Positions 1 to 31,930 of a stretch of 64,000 bases of DNA are shown one piece after another. Source of the stretch: a virus; IMG/VR virus record IMGVR_UViG_3300025117_000038, positions 1 through 64,000 of that record; one strand, given 5' to 3'. The notes below the pieces were generated by a model. The model was not told the origin of the DNA and made no database searches. It saw only the letters and a program-made list of their open reading frames with translations. A program made the translations under genes and the position numbers. Each line of letters opens with the position of its first letter. Positions within the stretch are counted from its first letter, which is position 1.

Positions 1-194
1 AATATAGGGATAATTTTCAAACTCCAAAGACAATTATTCTTCACAATGAAAATTATCCCTATATTGAGCGATTGGACAATATAATAGGGATTGAAGAATA
101 TGGACACCCAAAAGGAGAATATACTTTTCACTTGAAAAATAGTGAAATAGAAAAAAAGATAAAAAATATCGAACAAATGATTGTTTTGGATTAA
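1..194 (+). CDS. 3' end of an unidentified protein, cut by the window edge
   Basis: Frame 3 is open from the left edge to a TAA at 192-194 and encodes about 63 residues. The start lies outside the window. The tail is charged, with a Lys/Glu-rich helical stretch before the end. I do not recognise the family. It is followed 22 bases later by the next plus-strand gene, so it probably belongs to the same early operon. Confidence 0.5.
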   Translation, partial: YRDNFQTPKTIILHNENYPYIERLDNIIGIEEYGHPKGEYTFHLKNSEIEKKIKNIEQMIVLD

Positions 195-4882: not shown

Positions 4883-6037
4883 ATGTATAAAATTTACAAC
4901 GCAATATCTTTAATCCCCGAAGAAGAAATTGAATTAAGTGCTTTAGAGCAGATTGCAAGAGTTTCAAAACATCCTTACTTGGACGCCCCGTTTATTATTC
5001 TCCCCGATGTTCACGCAGGTGAGGGGGCAACTATCGGGTCGGTTATTCCACTCATTAATTTTATTTCACCGAGCATGATTGGGTATGATATCGGATGTGG
5101 AATATGGTGTGAAAGACTTGACTTTGGACATGCTCCTTTTGATAACATCTCTCTTGCAAGATTGGAAGATTTTATCAGAACGAATATTCCACTGGGATTC
5201 AATCATCGTACAACCGTTGACGGTATTGGGGATTTTGTTTACAAAACAGGGCAAAGATTTATCAGTGAAACATTCGAAATAAACGAAAAATACAATCTCA
5301 ATGCATTACTCTCACTCGGTACTCTTGGCGGTGGGAATCATTTTATTGAACTTACCAGAGGAGATGATGGGTTTGTTTATCTATTAATTCATTCTGGGTC
5401 AAGAAATATCGGGCATCGTATTGCATCGGAGTATATGGAAAAAGCCAAAACTACGGCAGAATATACCAATGGGCTCATCCCAACTGGTTTAGGTGGGTTC
5501 TCCGAAGGCGATGATGATTATGATAATTACTATGAAGAATATCTTTATGCTACTTCTTTTGCTCATCAAAATAGAAACATCATGGCTAAATTGATTATTA
5601 ATTACATGGCTCAAGAAGGTTTAATCAGTGGTAGTTTGGGATGGATTGATACTCCACATAATTTTCTTCACGTCGATATTATTAACAGTCAAATAATTCA
5701 TTATAAAGGAGCCATTAATGCTTTTGATAGTGCTATCGTGGCCGGGTCAATGGGAACCAACAGTTATATAGTACAATCAACACCTGAAGCACAGAAAATT
5801 CATTGGGCATGTTCGCATGGTGCAGGTCGCAGATTTTCGAGAAAACAAGCTAAGGAGATTTTGTCGGTAGATGATTTTAAGAGGATGGTAAGAGATGTTT
5901 ATGGATGTCAAACTGACCAGAACCATATTGACGAGTCTCCTATGGCGTATAAAGATATCGAATATGTTATGGAATCGCAAGGAAAAACAATTGTCATTAA
6001 AACCAAGTTGACTCCATTTTTTAACATTAAGGGGTAA
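4883..6037 (+). CDS. rtcB: RtcB-type RNA-splicing ligase
   Basis: 384 residues. RtcB joins 2',3'-cyclic phosphate or 3'-phosphate RNA ends to 5'-OH ends using GTP and Mn2+. Visible family signatures: ILPDVHAGEGATIGSVIP and IGYDIGCG (metal-binding Asp, His and Cys), GTLGGGNHFIE (metal-binding His) and the guanylylation motif SHGAGR near residue 310. Shorter than the roughly 400-480 residues usual for bacterial RtcB but with all core motifs. GGAAAATATT precedes the ATG. In this genome the likely substrates are cleaved or interrupted tRNAs; that is inference from the tRNA array at 23-32 kb. Confidence 0.9.
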   Translation: MYKIYNAISLIPEEEIELSALEQIARVSKHPYLDAPFIILPDVHAGEGATIGSVIPLINFISPSMIGYDIGCGIWCERLDFGHAPFDNISLARLEDFIRTNIPLGFNHRTTVDGIGDFVYKTGQRFISETFEINEKYNLNALLSLGTLGGGNHFIELTRGDDGFVYLLIHSGSRNIGHRIASEYMEKAKTTAEYTNGLIPTGLGGFSEGDDDYDNYYEEYLYATSFAHQNRNIMAKLIINYMAQEGLISGSLGWIDTPHNFLHVDIINSQIIHYKGAINAFDSAIVAGSMGTNSYIVQSTPEAQKIHWACSHGAGRRFSRKQAKEILSVDDFKRMVRDVYGCQTDQNHIDESPMAYKDIEYVMESQGKTIVIKTKLTPFFNIKG

Positions 6038-12311: not shown

Positions 12312-12887
12312 ATGGATAGCTTAGAGATTATTAAAAACGGCGATTATGTCATAAAAATCGTCCAAGATGATAACCCGGAAAGTCCTAGAGAATATGATAA
12401 TTTAGGTATAATGGCTTGCTTTCATGACCGGTACGTCTTAGGCGATAAAACAGATTTTAGAGATACCGGAGAATTATGCGAATTTATAAAAAAAAATAAG
12501 TCTGTTTATTTGCCTTTATATCTATTTGAACATAGCGGAATAAGTATATCTTGTAACGCTGAACGGTTTCGGGCGGTAGATTCGCAAGGCTGGGATTGGG
12601 GACAAGTCGGGATAATATACGTAACATATGACAAGCTACGTAAAGAGTATAGTCGTAGAAATATCACAAAAAGCTTCATTAAACAAATTAAAAAATATTT
12701 GATTGGTGAAGTCGATATATATGACAAATATATATCCGGCGAATGTTACGGTTATATTGTAGAAGACAAAAGTGGTAATTTTTTAGATTCGTGTTATGGT
12801 TTTTTTGACTTTGATGAATGTATTAGTCAAGCTAACGATTATGTAAAAACGTTGCCGCAACAATTAACCCTTAATATGGAGTATTAA
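12312..12887 (+). CDS. Conserved phage protein (DNPESPRExDNLGxMxCFHxxYxLGDK)
   Basis: 191 residues. The N-terminal DNPESPREYDNLGIMACF and YVLGDK are a signature I recognise from many phage and plasmid hypothetical proteins; function unknown. The centre (GWDWGQVGIIYVTYDKLRKEY) and the acidic C-terminus also fit. First gene of a seven-gene plus operon bounded by a promoter and a terminator. Confidence 0.7.
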   Translation: MDSLEIIKNGDYVIKIVQDDNPESPREYDNLGIMACFHDRYVLGDKTDFRDTGELCEFIKKNKSVYLPLYLFEHSGISISCNAERFRAVDSQGWDWGQVGIIYVTYDKLRKEYSRRNITKSFIKQIKKYLIGEVDIYDKYISGECYGYIVEDKSGNFLDSCYGFFDFDECISQANDYVKTLPQQLTLNMEY

Positions 12888-20039: not shown

Positions 20040-20495
20040 TCAAATTTTGTGAAACCATTTTATCCATTCCTCTAATTTTTCACCGTATTCTATTAGAAAA
20101 TCTTTTCCAAACAAATACATCAATGATTTTTTATCATCTCCTCCTTTGATGATTCTTATATATTTATAAGTAAATATCAAATGTTGTAAGATATCAACAC
20201 TAAACGAATAGATTTCTCCACCGATGGAGATAAACCAATAATCGGCTTCAGTCGTCTGAATGCCAGAAGGTTTTGTATTGTATTCAAACTCTATTGCTAC
20301 ATTATCAGTATATCCAGACATAATATCATTTTTTATCTCTATCGGGATAGTTATATCCCCTTTTATTACCACCATATCATAACTTCTGGAATTTATCAAT
20401 CTAGCGTGAATTTGGTTGTCGATAAATATCTCAAGAATTTTATTCTCAAGATATTGACCATCTTTTAAATCTTTATTAAAATCATAATGTGTCAT
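20040..20495 (-). CDS. PD-(D/E)XK-type nuclease candidate
   Basis: 151 residues. An N-terminal helix with E (DGQYLENKILEIF), then YDMVVIKGDITIPIEIKND: Asp followed by E-x-K on adjacent strands, then FEYNTKPSGIQTTEADYWFI, in line with the restriction-like nuclease fold. Could act in DNA recombination or packaging. Assigned by motif order only. Confidence 0.5.
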   Translation of the reverse strand: MTHYDFNKDLKDGQYLENKILEIFIDNQIHARLINSRSYDMVVIKGDITIPIEIKNDIMSGYTDNVAIEFEYNTKPSGIQTTEADYWFISIGGEIYSFSVDILQHLIFTYKYIRIIKGGDDKKSLMYLFGKDFLIEYGEKLEEWIKWFHKI

Positions 20496-20543: not shown

Positions 20544-21668
20544 TCAATGAAAATCAGTATTATTTTTTAACAATAAATACTCAGGATTTATATGTTTTAA
20601 GACCATTCTGCCACATCTTCCCGTTTTTTCTATTAGCGTTTTAATAACAATTCCTTCTTTAAGCGGTTGTTCCTTTGAAATTTCCGAACCCTTATTAAAA
20701 AATTCGTCTAACAACTCTGGGTTCCATGGTCCTATGTATAATGTATGAGGTAAAATAAAATCTACATTCATAACAATATTATCAATATCATAAAACATGT
20801 CTCCAAAATCACCATCACTTAAATAGTGTGGTTCTTCCCCGTTTTCATAAACCATAATATCAAAAACCATTAAACCTCTTTTGTTTTTCATTCCGTATGT
20901 ATATCCGTTTTGAATACCATCACCAAAAATTTCCCCATAGATTACACATCCCATGGGAATAGCTTTTTTCAAATTATATTTCTCTACCGCTTCTAAATAG
21001 ACATTATTCGAATAGTAATGTTTTCGACGATTTGAAAATAACTGTAACTGTACATTATGAGAGCCGAAGACAAACTCGTATTCAGGAAGAATGTTAAAGA
21101 ATTTTTTTATCTTTTTCCACCATGTATTCGCTATGGTTGGAACCCATCCGGCTCTAAAGTTGGTTCCATGTACTTTTTCGGTGATAACAACCATCTCCCC
21201 ATCAAAAATGTTAGGATAGTTTTTGATGTTCTCAATATCGGTATATTTTCTAAAGAGAGGATGGGTTTTTTTCTTGCTGACTTGGTATCCACCCTTCATG
21301 GTAATAGAGACAGTCGGTTCAAATTTAGTAATACCCAGAGTTTTAGTTACATCAATCCCCTCTTCTCTGGTTGTGATTTGAACCGTATCCAAGTCAACTA
21401 AGATTCCCTGAGAAATAACACCCCTGAGTTTGATTGTCCTGACTCTACCTTTATCCAACTTTATTTTGGCATTGCCAAGGATTTTTTCTTCCAACTCAGG
21501 GGTGAGAATGGCATCAATCGGGATATAGACAGCAATATCTCCCGATTTGAATTGCCCCTTTCCAACAATACAAACCCATCCTCTTATATAAGCCACTTCC
21601 AAACGGTCGGCATTCGGATGTGGTTCGATTCTATCGATTGAGACTGTTTCTACTTTAAGTGTTGACAT
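20544..21668 (-). CDS. ATP-dependent RNA ligase, DRB0094-like
   Basis: 374 residues. The N-terminal domain (IEPHPNADRLEVAYIRGW ... GDIAVYIPIDAILTPEL) matches the OB-like domain of the Deinococcus DRB0094 RNA ligase family. The ligase core has nucleotidyl-transfer motif I ITEKVHGTNFRAG (nucleophile Lys), FGSHN, VIYGEIFGDGIQ, LMVFDIMV, EGIVIK and MVLKHINPEYL. Seals 3'-OH/5'-P RNA breaks, complementary to RtcB chemistry. An AGGATG precedes the ATG. Confidence high for RNA ligase, moderate for the subfamily. Confidence 0.85.
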   Translation of the reverse strand: MSTLKVETVSIDRIEPHPNADRLEVAYIRGWVCIVGKGQFKSGDIAVYIPIDAILTPELEEKILGNAKIKLDKGRVRTIKLRGVISQGILVDLDTVQITTREEGIDVTKTLGITKFEPTVSITMKGGYQVSKKKTHPLFRKYTDIENIKNYPNIFDGEMVVITEKVHGTNFRAGWVPTIANTWWKKIKKFFNILPEYEFVFGSHNVQLQLFSNRRKHYYSNNVYLEAVEKYNLKKAIPMGCVIYGEIFGDGIQNGYTYGMKNKRGLMVFDIMVYENGEEPHYLSDGDFGDMFYDIDNIVMNVDFILPHTLYIGPWNPELLDEFFNKGSEISKEQPLKEGIVIKTLIEKTGRCGRMVLKHINPEYLLLKNNTDFH

Positions 21669-24752: not shown

Positions 24753-24863
24753 TTTCCCCAACAGAACTTGAACCCGTAGTCGATGGATTAGTAAACAAAT
24801 TTTAATTTATTAATACTTATGCAATTAGAAATCCATTACTTTATCCAATTGAGTTATGAGGAA
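24753..24863 (-). tRNA. tRNA-Arg(UCU) interrupted by about 37 nt in the anticodon loop
   Basis: Acceptor TTCCTCA/TGGGGAA, D-arm with AATTGGAT, and T-arm ACGGG-TTCAAGT-TCTGT are all present. The anticodon stem ATGGA/TCCAT is intact but the loop reads TTTCTAA, then about 37 AT-rich bases ending TTTACTAA. Removing these gives ATGGA-TTTCTAA-TCCAT, a normal UCU anticodon arm. The block is bordered by CTAAT direct repeats. It is far too short for a group I intron. Its end abuts the stop of the macro-domain gene. Confidence 0.7.
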
Positions 24864-25391
24864 TTATATTGATATAATATAAAATCTATTGTCCATCCCT
24901 ATATATTTGTCTAAAAGACCTAAAACACTATTCCACGAAAGTTCCCCATTTCCACAACCTGGTCTTGGGATAATTATTTTTTTCCATTCATTTATGTCGG
25001 CTAAATAAATAATCTGCCTTAAAGACCTTTCTATAATTTCTAAAGTAGCTTTAGCAGCCCAACCTGGAACTATATCACCACATTGGAATTTATCAGCCAT
25101 GTGTTTTACCACATTGCTTTTATCTTCATAACAAATAGTTTGTCTTGGTTTTACTGGAAAAGAATAAATAGAATATTTATTATATTTAATAAGTGGAAAA
25201 ACGCTATTCCCAAAAAGAGAAATTCCCTGTCCCAAAATAGCCTCAAGATTTTGTCCCGGATATAATTTAACGGCTTGTTTGGCTACTCCCCTACCCATAA
25301 CCCCATTTCCATTGGCTTTTACGAATCCATTAGTTGTGACACAAATTACATCGGCTTTTTGTTGAAAAATATTTCCAGAAATAAGATGCAT
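24864..25391 (-). CDS. Macro domain protein
   Basis: 175 residues from MHLISGNIFQQ; AAGGAATGG precedes the start. DVICVTTNGFVKANGNGVMGRGVAKQA is the ADP-ribose-binding signature (VTTNG, GVMGRGVA), and a later PRPGCGNGELSW supplies the GCG.G loop. Macro domains bind or remove ADP-ribose. In a phage this could reverse ADP-ribosylation or sequester nucleotide signals made by host defences; that part is inference. Confidence 0.8.
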   Translation of the reverse strand: MHLISGNIFQQKADVICVTTNGFVKANGNGVMGRGVAKQAVKLYPGQNLEAILGQGISLFGNSVFPLIKYNKYSIYSFPVKPRQTICYEDKSNVVKHMADKFQCGDIVPGWAAKATLEIIERSLRQIIYLADINEWKKIIIPRPGCGNGELSWNSVLGLLDKYIGMDNRFYIISI

Positions 25392-25411
25392 TTTCCATTC
25401 CTTTATAAAAG

Positions 25412-25497
25412 AGGAAGGTGTAGGATTTGAACCTACGGGGGTTGTTAACCCCAATAGTTTTCAAGACTATCGCCATAAACCACTCGGCCAACCTTCC
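25412..25497 (-). tRNA. tRNA-Ser(UGA)
   Basis: Acceptor GGAAGGT/ACCTTCC; anticodon arm ATAGT-CTTGAAA-ACTAT; long variable arm TGGGGTTAACAACCCC; T-arm GTAGG-TTCAAAT-CCTAC. A complete class II tRNA without extra sequence, a useful contrast with the neighbouring Tyr gene. Confidence 0.85.
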
Positions 25498-25505
25498 ATA
25501 ATTAG

Positions 25506-25589
25506 CGGAAGGGGAAAGAATCGAACTCTCAGGCCAAATACATGGCCACAGATTAGCAATCTGTTGCATTACCATTATGCTACCCTTCC
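25506..25589 (-). tRNA. tRNA-Ser(GCU)
   Basis: Acceptor GGAAGGG/CCCTTCC; anticodon arm ACAGA-TTGCTAA-TCTGT gives GCU; variable arm GGCCATGTATTTGGCC; discriminator G. Complete. Confidence 0.85.
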
Positions 25590-25634
25590 AATGACAGGAG
25601 AAGGATTTGAACCTCCGAAGCTTGCGCGACAGAT

Positions 25635-25650
25635 TTACTGAAGTAATTCA
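25635..25650 (-). repeat. 16-nt block in the tRNA-Tyr anticodon loop
   Basis: TGAATTACTTCAGTAA on the minus strand. It shares its first four and last nine bases with the 34-nt D-loop block, as if an internal deletion derivative. With its flank ACTGTAAT it can fold into a stem with a three-base bulge. Confidence 0.65.
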
Positions 25651-25666
25651 TTACAGTCTGTTGCCA

Positions 25667-25700
25667 TTACTGAAGAGGTGATAACTTCTTCCGTTGTTCA
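25667..25700 (-). repeat. 34-nt block in the tRNA-Tyr D-loop
   Basis: Begins TGAACAACGG and ends CTCTTCAGTAA. It matches 30 of 34 positions of the free copy at 10787-10820. Contains a GAAGA/TCTTC stem in which one pair differs from the free copy by a compensating change. Confidence 0.7.
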
Positions 25701-25739
25701 CTAACCACTCGGCCATCCTGTCTAATTCTTATTTATTTG

Positions 25740-25903
25740 AGCAAAGTGGCAGGACTCGAACCTGCAAAAGGACTTTCTTGGTGGCATTTATTAGTTCCTC
25801 GGCCTTAAGGAATCCTTGCGGACGGCTTAGAGCAAGTAAGCCTACATCGCCACATCGCCGGTATTTCAACTTATCATAGCGTTTACATTCCGCCACACTT
25901 TGC
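25740..25903 (-). tRNA. tRNA-Leu-like gene with about 75 extra bases
   Basis: Acceptor GCAAAGT/ACTTTGC (8 bp with the next pair), D-region GTGGCGGAATGTAAACGC as in tRNA-Leu, and T-arm GCAGG-TTCGAGT-CCTGC. Total about 163 nt. The centre folds as separate hairpins: GGCTTA/TAAGCC, GTCC-GCAA-GGAT and TTCCT/AGGAA, enclosed by GTGGC/GCCAC. I cannot place a confident anticodon, so the amino acid is provisional. Confidence 0.5.
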
Positions 25904-25998: not shown

Positions 25999-26023
25999 TA
26001 ACCTGCTCCACCACGAATTTTTT

Positions 26024-26126
26024 GGCAAAGTCTCAACAGATTCGAACTGTTCATGCAACCAGCACTATCCCGGATTCGAACCGGATGGGGTAGCTAACCC
26101 TCTTCGACCATCTCGTTGACTTTGCC
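26024..26126 (-). tRNA. Composite tRNA-like locus with two T-arms
   Basis: Acceptor halves GGCAAAGTC/GACTTTGCC pair over nine bases. Inside are a D-like hairpin CGA-GATGG-TCG, an arm GGG-TTAGCTA-CCC, a T-arm TCCGG-TTCGAAT-CCGGGA and a second T-arm AACAG-TTCGAAT-CTGTT. A normal tRNA has one T-arm, so this is either a fusion of two tRNAs or a tRNA with a T-arm-like insertion. It starts directly at promoter site b. Confidence 0.45.
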
Positions 26127-26140
26127 TATATATTATACGC
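26126..26140 (-). promoter_or_regulatory. Promoter motif GCGTATAATATATAG (site b)
   Basis: TATAAT occupies 26132-26137 on the minus strand, seven bases before the 5' end of the composite tRNA-like locus, which is the expected distance to a transcription start. Confidence 0.5.
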
Positions 26141-28089: not shown

Positions 28090-28156
28090 CGGGAGCAACG
28101 GGATTCGACCCCCTGACGTGACAGGCCAGTGGTTGTATCCATTTAACTATGCCCCC
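28090..28156 (-). tRNA. tRNA-Asp(GUC) lacking a variable loop
   Basis: Acceptor GGGGGCA/TGCTCCC; anticodon arm CTGGC-CTGTCAC-GTCAG; T-loop GTCGAAT. Only 67 nt: the anticodon stem runs straight into the T-arm, so the variable region and one T-stem pair are gone. Probably a deletion derivative with doubtful function. Confidence 0.6.
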
Positions 28157-30290: not shown

Positions 30291-30363
30291 TATTGGGAGA
30301 GGGATTCGAACCCTCACTGGATAGGGTCTAAGCCTATTGCCTCTACCGTTGGGCTACCCCAAT
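30291..30363 (-). tRNA. tRNA-Leu(UAG) with a short variable loop
   Basis: Acceptor ATTGGGG/TCCCAAT; anticodon arm ATAGG-CTTAGAC-CCTAT; variable region CCAGT only; T-arm GAGGG-TTCGAAT-CCCTC. Its D-arm (TAGCCCAACGGTAGAGGC) is nearly identical to that of the UAA tRNA at 24080. Confidence 0.75.
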
Positions 30364-31173
30364 AATATCTCCAATGTTACTTGACCCAAAACTAAACTGT
30401 AGTCCATTTCCATGGTGACACATGCTTGCCACCATTTGCAATAAAGAATCAGCCTTTTTATAATCAATCTTAGATGGTAAAACTGATTTTTCTCTTATAT
30501 TTTGTAAATCACTGAATCCATTTTCGGCCAACTCTTTTACTTCTTCCAATGAATATTTCCCCTCTTTGATATCCATTAAAAATTGATGGTCATTATCTCT
30601 AAAAATTTTAACTTTTCCGGTTTCAAGAATTTCTTTTCCCATTGTTAGCAAACGGACTAAATGAGAGGCATTCTTCGTATCGTAGCCATATCTTTCAACA
30701 AGAGCCTTTCTTTTTTCTCCCATATATCCCTCTCTATGGCCGTGTTGCATTTTTTGTAATTGAGAGTAGGCATATCCACTAAAAGCCTGATAAATTCCAT
30801 CAGTATAAAGGAACTCTTCTCTGTGGTCAATTAATATTTGCCCTGCTACTGTAATTGTTTTATAAAATTCTCTTTCATTCCATAACAAAGAAAATATATT
30901 AGGGTTACATTTCATTAACAATCGAAAAAACTTTTTTACCTCATACGAAACGATGTCATTGGGGTTATCTTTTGTTGGCAATTGTTCATATTGTTCTATT
31001 TTATTTAATCCATAATAATAAGATACCGGAGCCGAAAATACCCCAATCCAATCAATATCGTCAATACCATGCTCATCCATTGAGGGTTTATAAAGTCCAT
31101 GAGCAATACTTCCCCTTAAACAATACAACAAGTGTCTTTGCCCAATTTCTTCTTCTAATTTTGAGTCTATCAT
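30343..31173 (-). CDS. RlaP-like nucleotidyltransferase (RNA repair)
   Basis: 276 residues. RGSIAHGLYKPSMDEHGIDD followed by IDWIGVF shows the polymerase-beta superfamily G-S ... D-x-D metal motif, and SYYYGLNKIEQYE plus YEVKKFFRLLMKCNPN are typical of the RlaP clade. RlaP proteins are predicted to work beside RNA ligases in RNA repair or end processing. Transcribed from promoter site d; its stop overlaps tRNA-Leu(UAG). Exact reaction unknown. Confidence 0.7.
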   Translation of the reverse strand: MIDSKLEEEIGQRHLLYCLRGSIAHGLYKPSMDEHGIDDIDWIGVFSAPVSYYYGLNKIEQYEQLPTKDNPNDIVSYEVKKFFRLLMKCNPNIFSLLWNEREFYKTITVAGQILIDHREEFLYTDGIYQAFSGYAYSQLQKMQHGHREGYMGEKRKALVERYGYDTKNASHLVRLLTMGKEILETGKVKIFRDNDHQFLMDIKEGKYSLEEVKELAENGFSDLQNIREKSVLPSKIDYKKADSLLQMVASMCHHGNGLQFSFGSSNIGDIIGVAQR

Positions 31174-31824: not shown

Positions 31825-31923
31825 GGGGCTAAATGGTGTCGATTTGGGTGTTGTGACTCTTTGGGAGTTTGCCTGACAAGGCGGTAACACCCGAAGACCT
31901 CGGTTCGATTCCGAGTAGCTCCA
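31825..31923 (+). tRNA. Plus-strand tRNA (Asn-like) with about 30 extra bases in the anticodon loop
   Basis: Begins on the base after the barrel gene's stop. Acceptor GGGGCTA/TAGCTCC, T-arm CTCGG-TTCGATT-CCGAG, discriminator A. The stem GGGTG/CACCC encloses 37 bases starting TTGT and ending TAA; removing 30 would leave TTGTTAA, anticodon GUU (Asn), although other cuts would give GUG or GGU. The D-arm is short and irregular. Identity is provisional. Confidence 0.5.
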
Positions 31924-31930
31924 TTTTATT

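What the first reader, a model, noticed from the sequence alone, without database searches (positions are those of the whole stretch)
25592..25722. tRNA-Tyr carries two removable blocks, in the D-loop and anticodon loop, with shared ends
The sequence shows a 34-nt block (25667-25700) and a 16-nt block (25635-25650). Both begin TGAA and end CTTCAGTAA on the minus strand, and removing both restores standard D-arm and anticodon-arm geometry. The smaller looks like an internal deletion of the larger. They are too short for group I or II introns. Either the phage tRNA is spliced by an unknown route, or a very small mobile element inserts into tRNA loops. I know of no described bacterial or phage element of this kind.
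Basis: partly seen in the sequence, partly recalled or inferred. Interest (0 to 1): 0.9.

Follow-up and report, generated by a model that had tools for sequence, protein, structure and literature searches.

The report
Phage tyrosine tRNA with two mini-inserts
A virus of bacteria carries a tyrosine transfer-RNA gene broken up by two tiny extra segments that must be cut out to leave a normal tRNA; no such short, non-ribozyme tRNA insert is documented in phages in the papers I could search, and the virus also encodes an RNA-joining enzyme that could reseal the pieces, but splicing itself is not shown.

Summary
At 25592-25722 (minus strand) lies a 131-nt gene that tRNA finders miss; removing a 34-nt D-loop block and a 16-nt anticodon-loop block leaves a textbook bacterial tRNA-Tyr(GUA), 21/21 stem pairs and 17/17 conserved bases intact. 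One correction: the D-loop block is best read as 25668-25701, because only that set of registers restores A21. The shared ends exceed chance. It is not alone: tRNA-Arg(UCU) at 24753-24863 carries a 37-nt anticodon-loop insert. Both anticodon inserts sit between direct repeats (GTAA; CTAAT), and all three can be removed by cuts at U^A. The 117-kb circular phage genome encodes RtcB with intact catalytic motifs, an Rnl5-type RNA ligase and RlaP. The inserts are not group I/II introns, have no bulge-helix-bulge motif, and the phage has no detectable EndA. Strict sequence patterns found no such tRNA-Tyr in IMG/VR or (anticodon-loop pattern) 85,000 genomes; 257 tRNAs from RtcB-bearing viruses included none. 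Best reading (0.45): short tRNA introns cut by an unknown ribonuclease and resealed by phage RtcB. The main rival, decay of a tRNA array that also holds visibly broken tRNAs, is not excluded. No transcript data exist here.

The parts
25592..25722 (-). tRNA-Tyr(GUA) gene with two inserts (131 nt; 81 nt without them); class II variable arm, no encoded CCA
25668..25701 (-). D-loop insert, 34 nt, GTGAACAACGGAAGAAGTTATCACCTCTTCAGTA (register restoring A21; equivalent registers 25669-25702 and 25670-25703; reader gave 25667-25700)
25635..25650 (-). Anticodon-loop insert, 16 nt, TGAATTACTTCAGTAA, compatible with position 37/38; direct repeat GTAA makes the register ambiguous up to 25639-25654; U^A register 25637-25652
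24753..24863 (-). tRNA-Arg(UCU) gene with a 37-nt anticodon-loop insert; ARAGORN calls Arg(tct) after removal
24788..24824 (-). Insert of tRNA-Arg, TTGCATAAGTATTAATAAATTAAAATTTGTTTACTAA, between CTAAT direct repeats (U^A register 24790-24826)
4883..6037 (+). RtcB RNA ligase, 384 aa, catalytic motifs DIGCG, GGGNH, HSGSR, HN, SHGAGR intact
20544..21668 (-). ATP-dependent RNA ligase of the DRB0094 (Rnl5) family
30343..31173 (-). RlaP, RNA-ligase-associated nucleotidyltransferase, overlapping tRNA-Leu(UAG) at the head of the array
24864..25394 (-). Macro-domain protein between the Arg and Ser tRNA genes (possible RNA-repair accessory; function inferred)
25411..25589 (-). tRNA-Ser(GCU) and tRNA-Ser(UGA), normal, directly downstream of tRNA-Tyr

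Best explanation
The blocks are short introns of phage tRNA genes. The gene is transcribed with its array; a ribonuclease of host or phage cuts in the swollen D and anticodon loops at equivalent sites on both sides of each block (most simply at U^A within the flanking repeats, leaving 2',3'-cyclic phosphate and 5'-OH ends); the folded tRNA body holds the pieces together and phage RtcB joins them, giving a normal tRNA-Tyr(GUA). tRNA-Arg(UCU) matures the same way. Shown: the inserts, the canonical product, the repeats, an apparently intact RtcB. Inferred: transcription, cutting, cut sites, ligation, and the unidentified nuclease.
For: Removal of both blocks is needed and sufficient for a canonical tRNA. 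The body is perfect (21/21 pairs, 17/17 conserved bases); four random exon substitutions would leave only 2% of genes that perfect. A second tRNA has an insert in the same loop with the same solution. Anticodon inserts lie between 4- and 5-nt direct repeats (chance of ambiguity of 4 or more about 0.016 each), and one rule, U^A, fits all three. RtcB, Rnl5 ligase and RlaP are encoded. Lengths 16, 34, 37 lie in the 11-129 nt range of archaeal tRNA introns (PMC4090602). Similar introns at several tRNA positions, ascribed to transposition, are known in Thermoproteales (same paper).
Against: No transcript evidence. No candidate nuclease: no EndA, no BHB motif in any register, unknown ORFs near the ligase gave no usable fold. 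RtcB is common in phages with normal tRNAs (633 of 50,697 records; 257 tRNAs surveyed without such an insert), and the nearest relative has RtcB and 12 normal tRNAs. The same array holds visibly damaged tRNAs (tRNA-Asp 28090-28156). UpA is a common dinucleotide, so the U^A rule is weak. Only one genome shows the inserts.
Confidence: 0.45

Rival explanations
1. Decay: short insertions (template switching, slippage or recombination between tRNA genes) killed tRNA-Tyr and tRNA-Arg recently and the bodies have not yet eroded.
For: The array holds other abnormal tRNAs: Asp lacking about 7 nt (28090-28156), an element with two T-arms (26022-26128), tRNA-likes not reducible to a canonical tRNA. The anticodon block has the form X-Y-X'-Y'-X (GTAA TGAA TTAC TTCA GTAA), as template switching could produce. 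Flanking repeats fit slippage. The relative shows normal tRNAs at the syntenic place.
Against: Two inserts in one gene plus a third in another, with the Tyr body perfect. The two Tyr blocks have had time to differ in their insides while 81 exon bases show no damage. All inserts sit in loops where a clean exit is possible.
Confidence: 0.33
2. Not a translational tRNA: a tRNA-shaped RNA with enlarged loops that acts as decoy or regulator, for example against host nucleases that attack tRNA-Tyr or anticodon loops.
For: The phage has other tRNA-likes with oversize interiors (L003:12826-12982, window 25735-25903), and two other phage contigs have similar ones (L148:6105-6229, L151:1316-1464). Retron-Eco7 depletes tRNA-Tyr and phage tRNA-Tyr counters it (PMC11555353).
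Against: Anticodon, variable arm, A21 and discriminator base are kept as in a working tRNA-Tyr. In the cited study changing the anticodon or stem-loops abolished the counter-effect, so that role needs a translating tRNA.
Confidence: 0.15
3. Archaeal-type bulge-helix-bulge introns in a virus of archaea, cut by host EndA.
For: Size, position 37/38 and several introns per tRNA match; some named relatives of the ribonucleotide reductase are haloviruses.
Against: No BHB; class II tRNA-Tyr with G1-C72, Pol III alpha, DnaB, DnaG, RuvB and a tmRNA-like gene point to a bacterial host.
Confidence: 0.03
4. Assembly or sequencing artefact.
For: Single metagenome record; a 17-nt fold-back artefact at the contig start.
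Against: Inserts fall exactly in loops of intact tRNAs; long ORFs are open, so indel errors are rare.
Confidence: 0.04

Closest known systems
Archaeal protein-spliced tRNA introns (BHB type; multi-intron tRNAs of Thermoproteales)
   Same: Short (11-129 nt), in anticodon and other loops, more than one per gene, related sequence at different sites, RtcB-type ligation
   Different: No BHB motif at any register, no EndA in the phage, bacterial-type tRNA and virus
Bacterial and phage group I introns
   Same: Interrupt tRNA anticodon loops in bacteria
   Different: Far too small, no ribozyme match in Rfam; a 2014 review states that all phage group I introns then known were in protein-coding genes (PMC3984707)
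Bacterial 23S rRNA intervening sequences
   Same: Hairpin inserts in loops of a structural RNA, removed by a general ribonuclease
   Different: Those have long stems cut by RNase III and the reported product is a fragmented rRNA (PMC4990558); here stems are 4-6 bp and a working tRNA would need joining
Phage tRNA repair (RtcB, Rnl ligases, RlaP)
   Same: The same enzymes are encoded here
   Different: Known for mending tRNAs cut by host nucleases, not for removing inserts
Phage tRNAs altered to escape anticodon nucleases
   Different: Those are point changes; no insertion of 16-37 nt is described

Membership tests
Bacterial tRNA-Tyr(GUA), after removal of the blocks | Cloverleaf with GUA anticodon, long variable arm, A21, A73 | tested here: met
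   ARAGORN on joined exons; 21/21 pairs, 17/17 conserved bases
Archaeal BHB tRNA intron | 4-bp helix flanked by two 3-nt bulges at the splice sites | tested here: not met
   All registers of all inserts scored, none has 4/4 central pairs
Archaeal BHB tRNA intron | EndA-type splicing endonuclease | tested here: not met
   PF01974 absent from the phage genome at E up to 5; the host is unknown, so a host enzyme is not testable
Archaeal BHB tRNA intron | Length 11-129 nt, position 37/38 or non-canonical loop sites | tested here: met
   16, 34 and 37 nt; registers include 37/38 (PMC4090602)
Group I or II intron | Ribozyme core | tested here: not met
   Inserts of 16-37 nt; no Rfam match to an intron family in 23.7-32.2 kb at E up to 1
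Bacterial rRNA-type intervening sequence | Long terminal inverted repeat for RNase III | tested here: not met
   Longest predicted insert helix about 6 bp
RtcB RNA ligase | Family profile and catalytic Cys/His motifs | tested here: met
   PF01139 E=3.5e-72; DIGCG, GGGNH, HSGSR, HN, SHGAGR aligned with four other phage RtcBs
Spliced tRNA intron of any kind | Joined transcript exists | not testable with these tools
   No RNA data

The most novel reading that the evidence does not exclude
A bacteriophage has interrupted tRNA genes with tiny introns, two in one tRNA, removed in a bacterium by an endonuclease other than EndA and sealed by phage RtcB. The same genome may also carry a circularly permuted tRNA (G000:116382-116470), so discontinuous tRNA genes processed by cutting and resealing would exist outside archaea and eukaryotes.
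Probability: 0.35. Interest if true: 0.92.

Novelty: new variant of a known kind. Interest (0 to 1): 0.72.

Why it matters
Protein-spliced tRNA introns are known from archaea and eukaryotes; bacterial tRNA introns so far are self-splicing ribozymes (general knowledge; PMC4090602 and PMC3984707 are consistent with this). A phage that needs cut-and-reseal processing for its own tRNAs would give a biosynthetic role to the RtcB ligases that hundreds of phages carry and that are now seen only as repair enzymes, and would make the origin of tRNA introns testable in bacteria. If the genes are dead, they show instead how phage tRNA arrays decay.

Tried and rejected
Archaeal BHB model: scored over all registers, rejected. 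EndA homologue: none. Group I/II or other Rfam RNA in the inserts: none. Close relatives: RlaP, RtcB and terminase scans gave one usable relative, G001, with normal tRNAs and no Tyr or Arg. Tyr D-loop pattern gave only coding sequence; it requires CTGTANA and so would have missed this double-insert gene. Tyr anticodon-loop pattern gave normal tRNAs or coding sequence. The double-insert pattern recovers this gene and in IMG/VR gave only a two-tRNA span and an unrelated tRNA-like. Structure prediction of two ORFs near the ligase: pLDDT 41 and 33, uninformative. Hammerhead halves GGACGAAAC and CTGATGAGTCC near L003:12484 and 12619: no Rfam support, dropped. Mobile mini-element: no further copies. 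One or two excisions do not turn L003:12826-12982 into a canonical tRNA, nor does one excision for window 25735-25903, so these were not counted as insert-bearing tRNAs.

Full report
What was checked. The window is bases 1-64000 of a 117,395-base virus record whose ends overlap, so the genome is circular and near complete. A tRNA array runs on the minus strand from 23.8 to 30.4 kb. ARAGORN lists 12 tRNAs; Rfam adds tRNA-Arg at 24753-24863 and a damaged tRNA-Asp at 28090-28156. Neither tool finds the gene at 25592-25722.

The tRNA-Tyr gene. On the minus strand it reads GACAGGA TG GCCG AGTGGTTA [D block] ATGGC A ACAGA CTGTAA [AC block] ATCTGT, then the variable arm and T-arm. With intron search off, ARAGORN finds nothing in the raw gene or with one block removed, and a canonical class II tRNA-Tyr(gta) when both are removed. 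All 21 stem pairs form and 17 of 17 conserved positions are kept; in simulation one random substitution leaves 38% of genes that perfect, four leave 2%, six 0.3%. The anticodon block is ambiguous over five registers because GTAA stands on both sides.

Are the shared ends chance? The blocks share 4 bases at the start and 9 at the end. In about 2 million random block pairs from the array none share both. Allowing for the choice of register the match stays unlikely by chance; kinship, or selection for the same boundary, is probable. The claim that one is an internal deletion of the other cannot be tested with two copies. CTTCAGTAA is otherwise found once in the window, so this is not a dispersed element.

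A second case. tRNA-Arg(UCU), 24753-24863, has a 37-nt anticodon-loop insert between CTAAT repeats; without it ARAGORN reports tRNA-Arg(tct), and enumeration of excisions finds the same solution, which shuffled sequence reaches in 1% of trials. A third possible case, L003:12494-12592 (G000:116494-116592), has an anticodon-loop hairpin whose removal gives a good stem but no clear anticodon. All three inserts of Tyr and Arg can leave by cuts at U^A with correct products: GGUU^A...CAGU^A, CUGU^A...CAGU^A, UUCU^A...UACU^A. UpA is common, so this is a hypothesis about the cut, not evidence for it.

Enzymes. The genome encodes RtcB (4883-6037) with catalytic motifs conserved in an alignment with four phage RtcBs, an RNA ligase of the DRB0094 family, RlaP, a SpoU-type methylase and a macro-domain protein in the array. 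RtcB joins the ends that metal-independent ribonucleases leave (PMC7824862). No EndA-type endonuclease is present. RtcB alone is weak evidence, because 633 of 50,697 phage records have a relative.

How rare is it? A strict pattern for tRNA-Tyr with a D-loop insert gave only coding sequence in IMG/VR; it asks for CTGTANA and would not match this very gene. The anticodon-loop pattern gave only normal tRNAs or coding sequence in IMG/VR and 84,980 genomes. The double pattern recovers this gene and no other tRNA-Tyr. These patterns require exact matches to conserved tRNA-Tyr bases, so they are not exhaustive. Of 50 RtcB-bearing virus contigs, 31 have tRNA matches; 11 stretches of ten of them plus the relative hold 257 ARAGORN tRNAs, none with a short insert whose removal is clean. 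The nearest relative, G001 (65% terminase identity, own RtcB), has 12 normal tRNAs in a partly syntenic array and no tRNA-Tyr or tRNA-Arg, so it neither confirms nor refutes the blocks.

What kind of thing is it? Group I/II introns are excluded by size and Rfam. Archaeal introns match in size and position, but the defining BHB motif fails at every register. The host is most likely a bacterium: class II tRNA-Tyr with G1-C72, Pol III alpha, DnaB, DnaG, RuvB and a tmRNA-like gene. Bacterial rRNA intervening sequences rely on long RNase III stems (PMC4990558), which are absent here.

Weighing splicing against decay. For decay: the array contains tRNA-Asp with a deletion, a chimera with two T-arms, and tRNA-likes that no small excision makes canonical. 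For splicing: two tRNAs with three loop inserts keep good bodies, the inserts can all leave cleanly, and a resealing enzyme is present. I give splicing 0.45, decay 0.33, a non-translational role 0.15, and the rest to archaeal BHB and artefact. Nothing here shows a transcript.

A further lead. Near the contig end a 3' tRNA half (L003:12388-12419) precedes a 5' half (12426-12456) with acceptor GGGGAGA/TCTCTCC, a 6-nt linker and flanks TTCAAG/CTTGAA. Put in normal order, all 24 joins tried are called tRNAs by ARAGORN, although the T-stem has one defect, U33 is lacking in the simplest join and anticodons vary. If real, it would be a circularly permuted tRNA gene in a phage. Together with the inserts it makes this genome worth RNA work.

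Noticed in passing
L003:12382-12470 (G000:116382-116470, +): Circularly permuted tRNA-like: 3' half before 5' half, acceptor GGGGAGA/TCTCTCC joined by TTAATT, flanks TTCAAG/CTTGAA; ARAGORN calls a tRNA when the halves are put in normal order, with defects (4-bp T-stem, no U33 in the simplest join).
   Followed up: partly
window 31825-31926 (+): tmRNA family match above the gathering score (49.8 bits) but only 102 nt: tRNA-like domain with no apparent tag reading frame.
   Followed up: partly
L003:12826-12982 (+) and window 25735-25903 (-): Two tRNA-likes of 157 and 169 nt with good acceptor and T-arm but a large structured interior in place of the anticodon arm; not reducible to a canonical tRNA.
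   Followed up: partly
L148:6105-6229 (-) and L151:1316-1464 (-): Similar oversize tRNA-likes (125 and 149 nt) in two other IMG/VR contigs.
   Followed up: partly
window 28090-28156 (-): tRNA-Asp(GUC) lacking about 7 nt between anticodon stem and T-loop; probably broken.
   Followed up: partly
window 26022-26128 (-): Element with a 9-bp terminal stem GGCAAAGTC/GACTTTGCC and two T-arm-like hairpins, as if two tRNAs had recombined.
   Followed up: no
L003:12635-12813 (+): About 180-nt structured RNA closed by a long perfect stem (GAATTGAGTGCATC/GATGCACTCAATTC), no Rfam match.
   Followed up: no
L003:12494-12592 (+): tRNA-like with a 25-nt anticodon-loop hairpin insert; after removal the stem TTGGG/CCCAA is perfect but the anticodon is unclear.
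   Followed up: partly
window 20040-20495 (-): ORF beside the RNA ligase with a D-x(n)-ExK pattern recalling PD-(D/E)XK nucleases; relatives in Pelagibacter phages and Xanthomonas phage XacN1; fold prediction failed.
   Followed up: partly
L150:3456-3712 (+): Phage tRNA-Phe(GAA) with a 186-nt intron called by ARAGORN; no Rfam intron match among the listed hits; not examined further.
   Followed up: no
L146:5742-6071 (-): Class A bacterial RNase P RNA (191 bits) and a tmRNA inside the tRNA array of an RtcB-bearing virus contig.
   Followed up: no
L002:16341-19922 (-): DNA polymerase III alpha carrying an intein-like splicing domain.
   Followed up: no
window 1-140 and L003:13270-13395: The record's ends overlap: the genome is circular, with a 17-nt fold-back artefact at the start.
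   Followed up: yes
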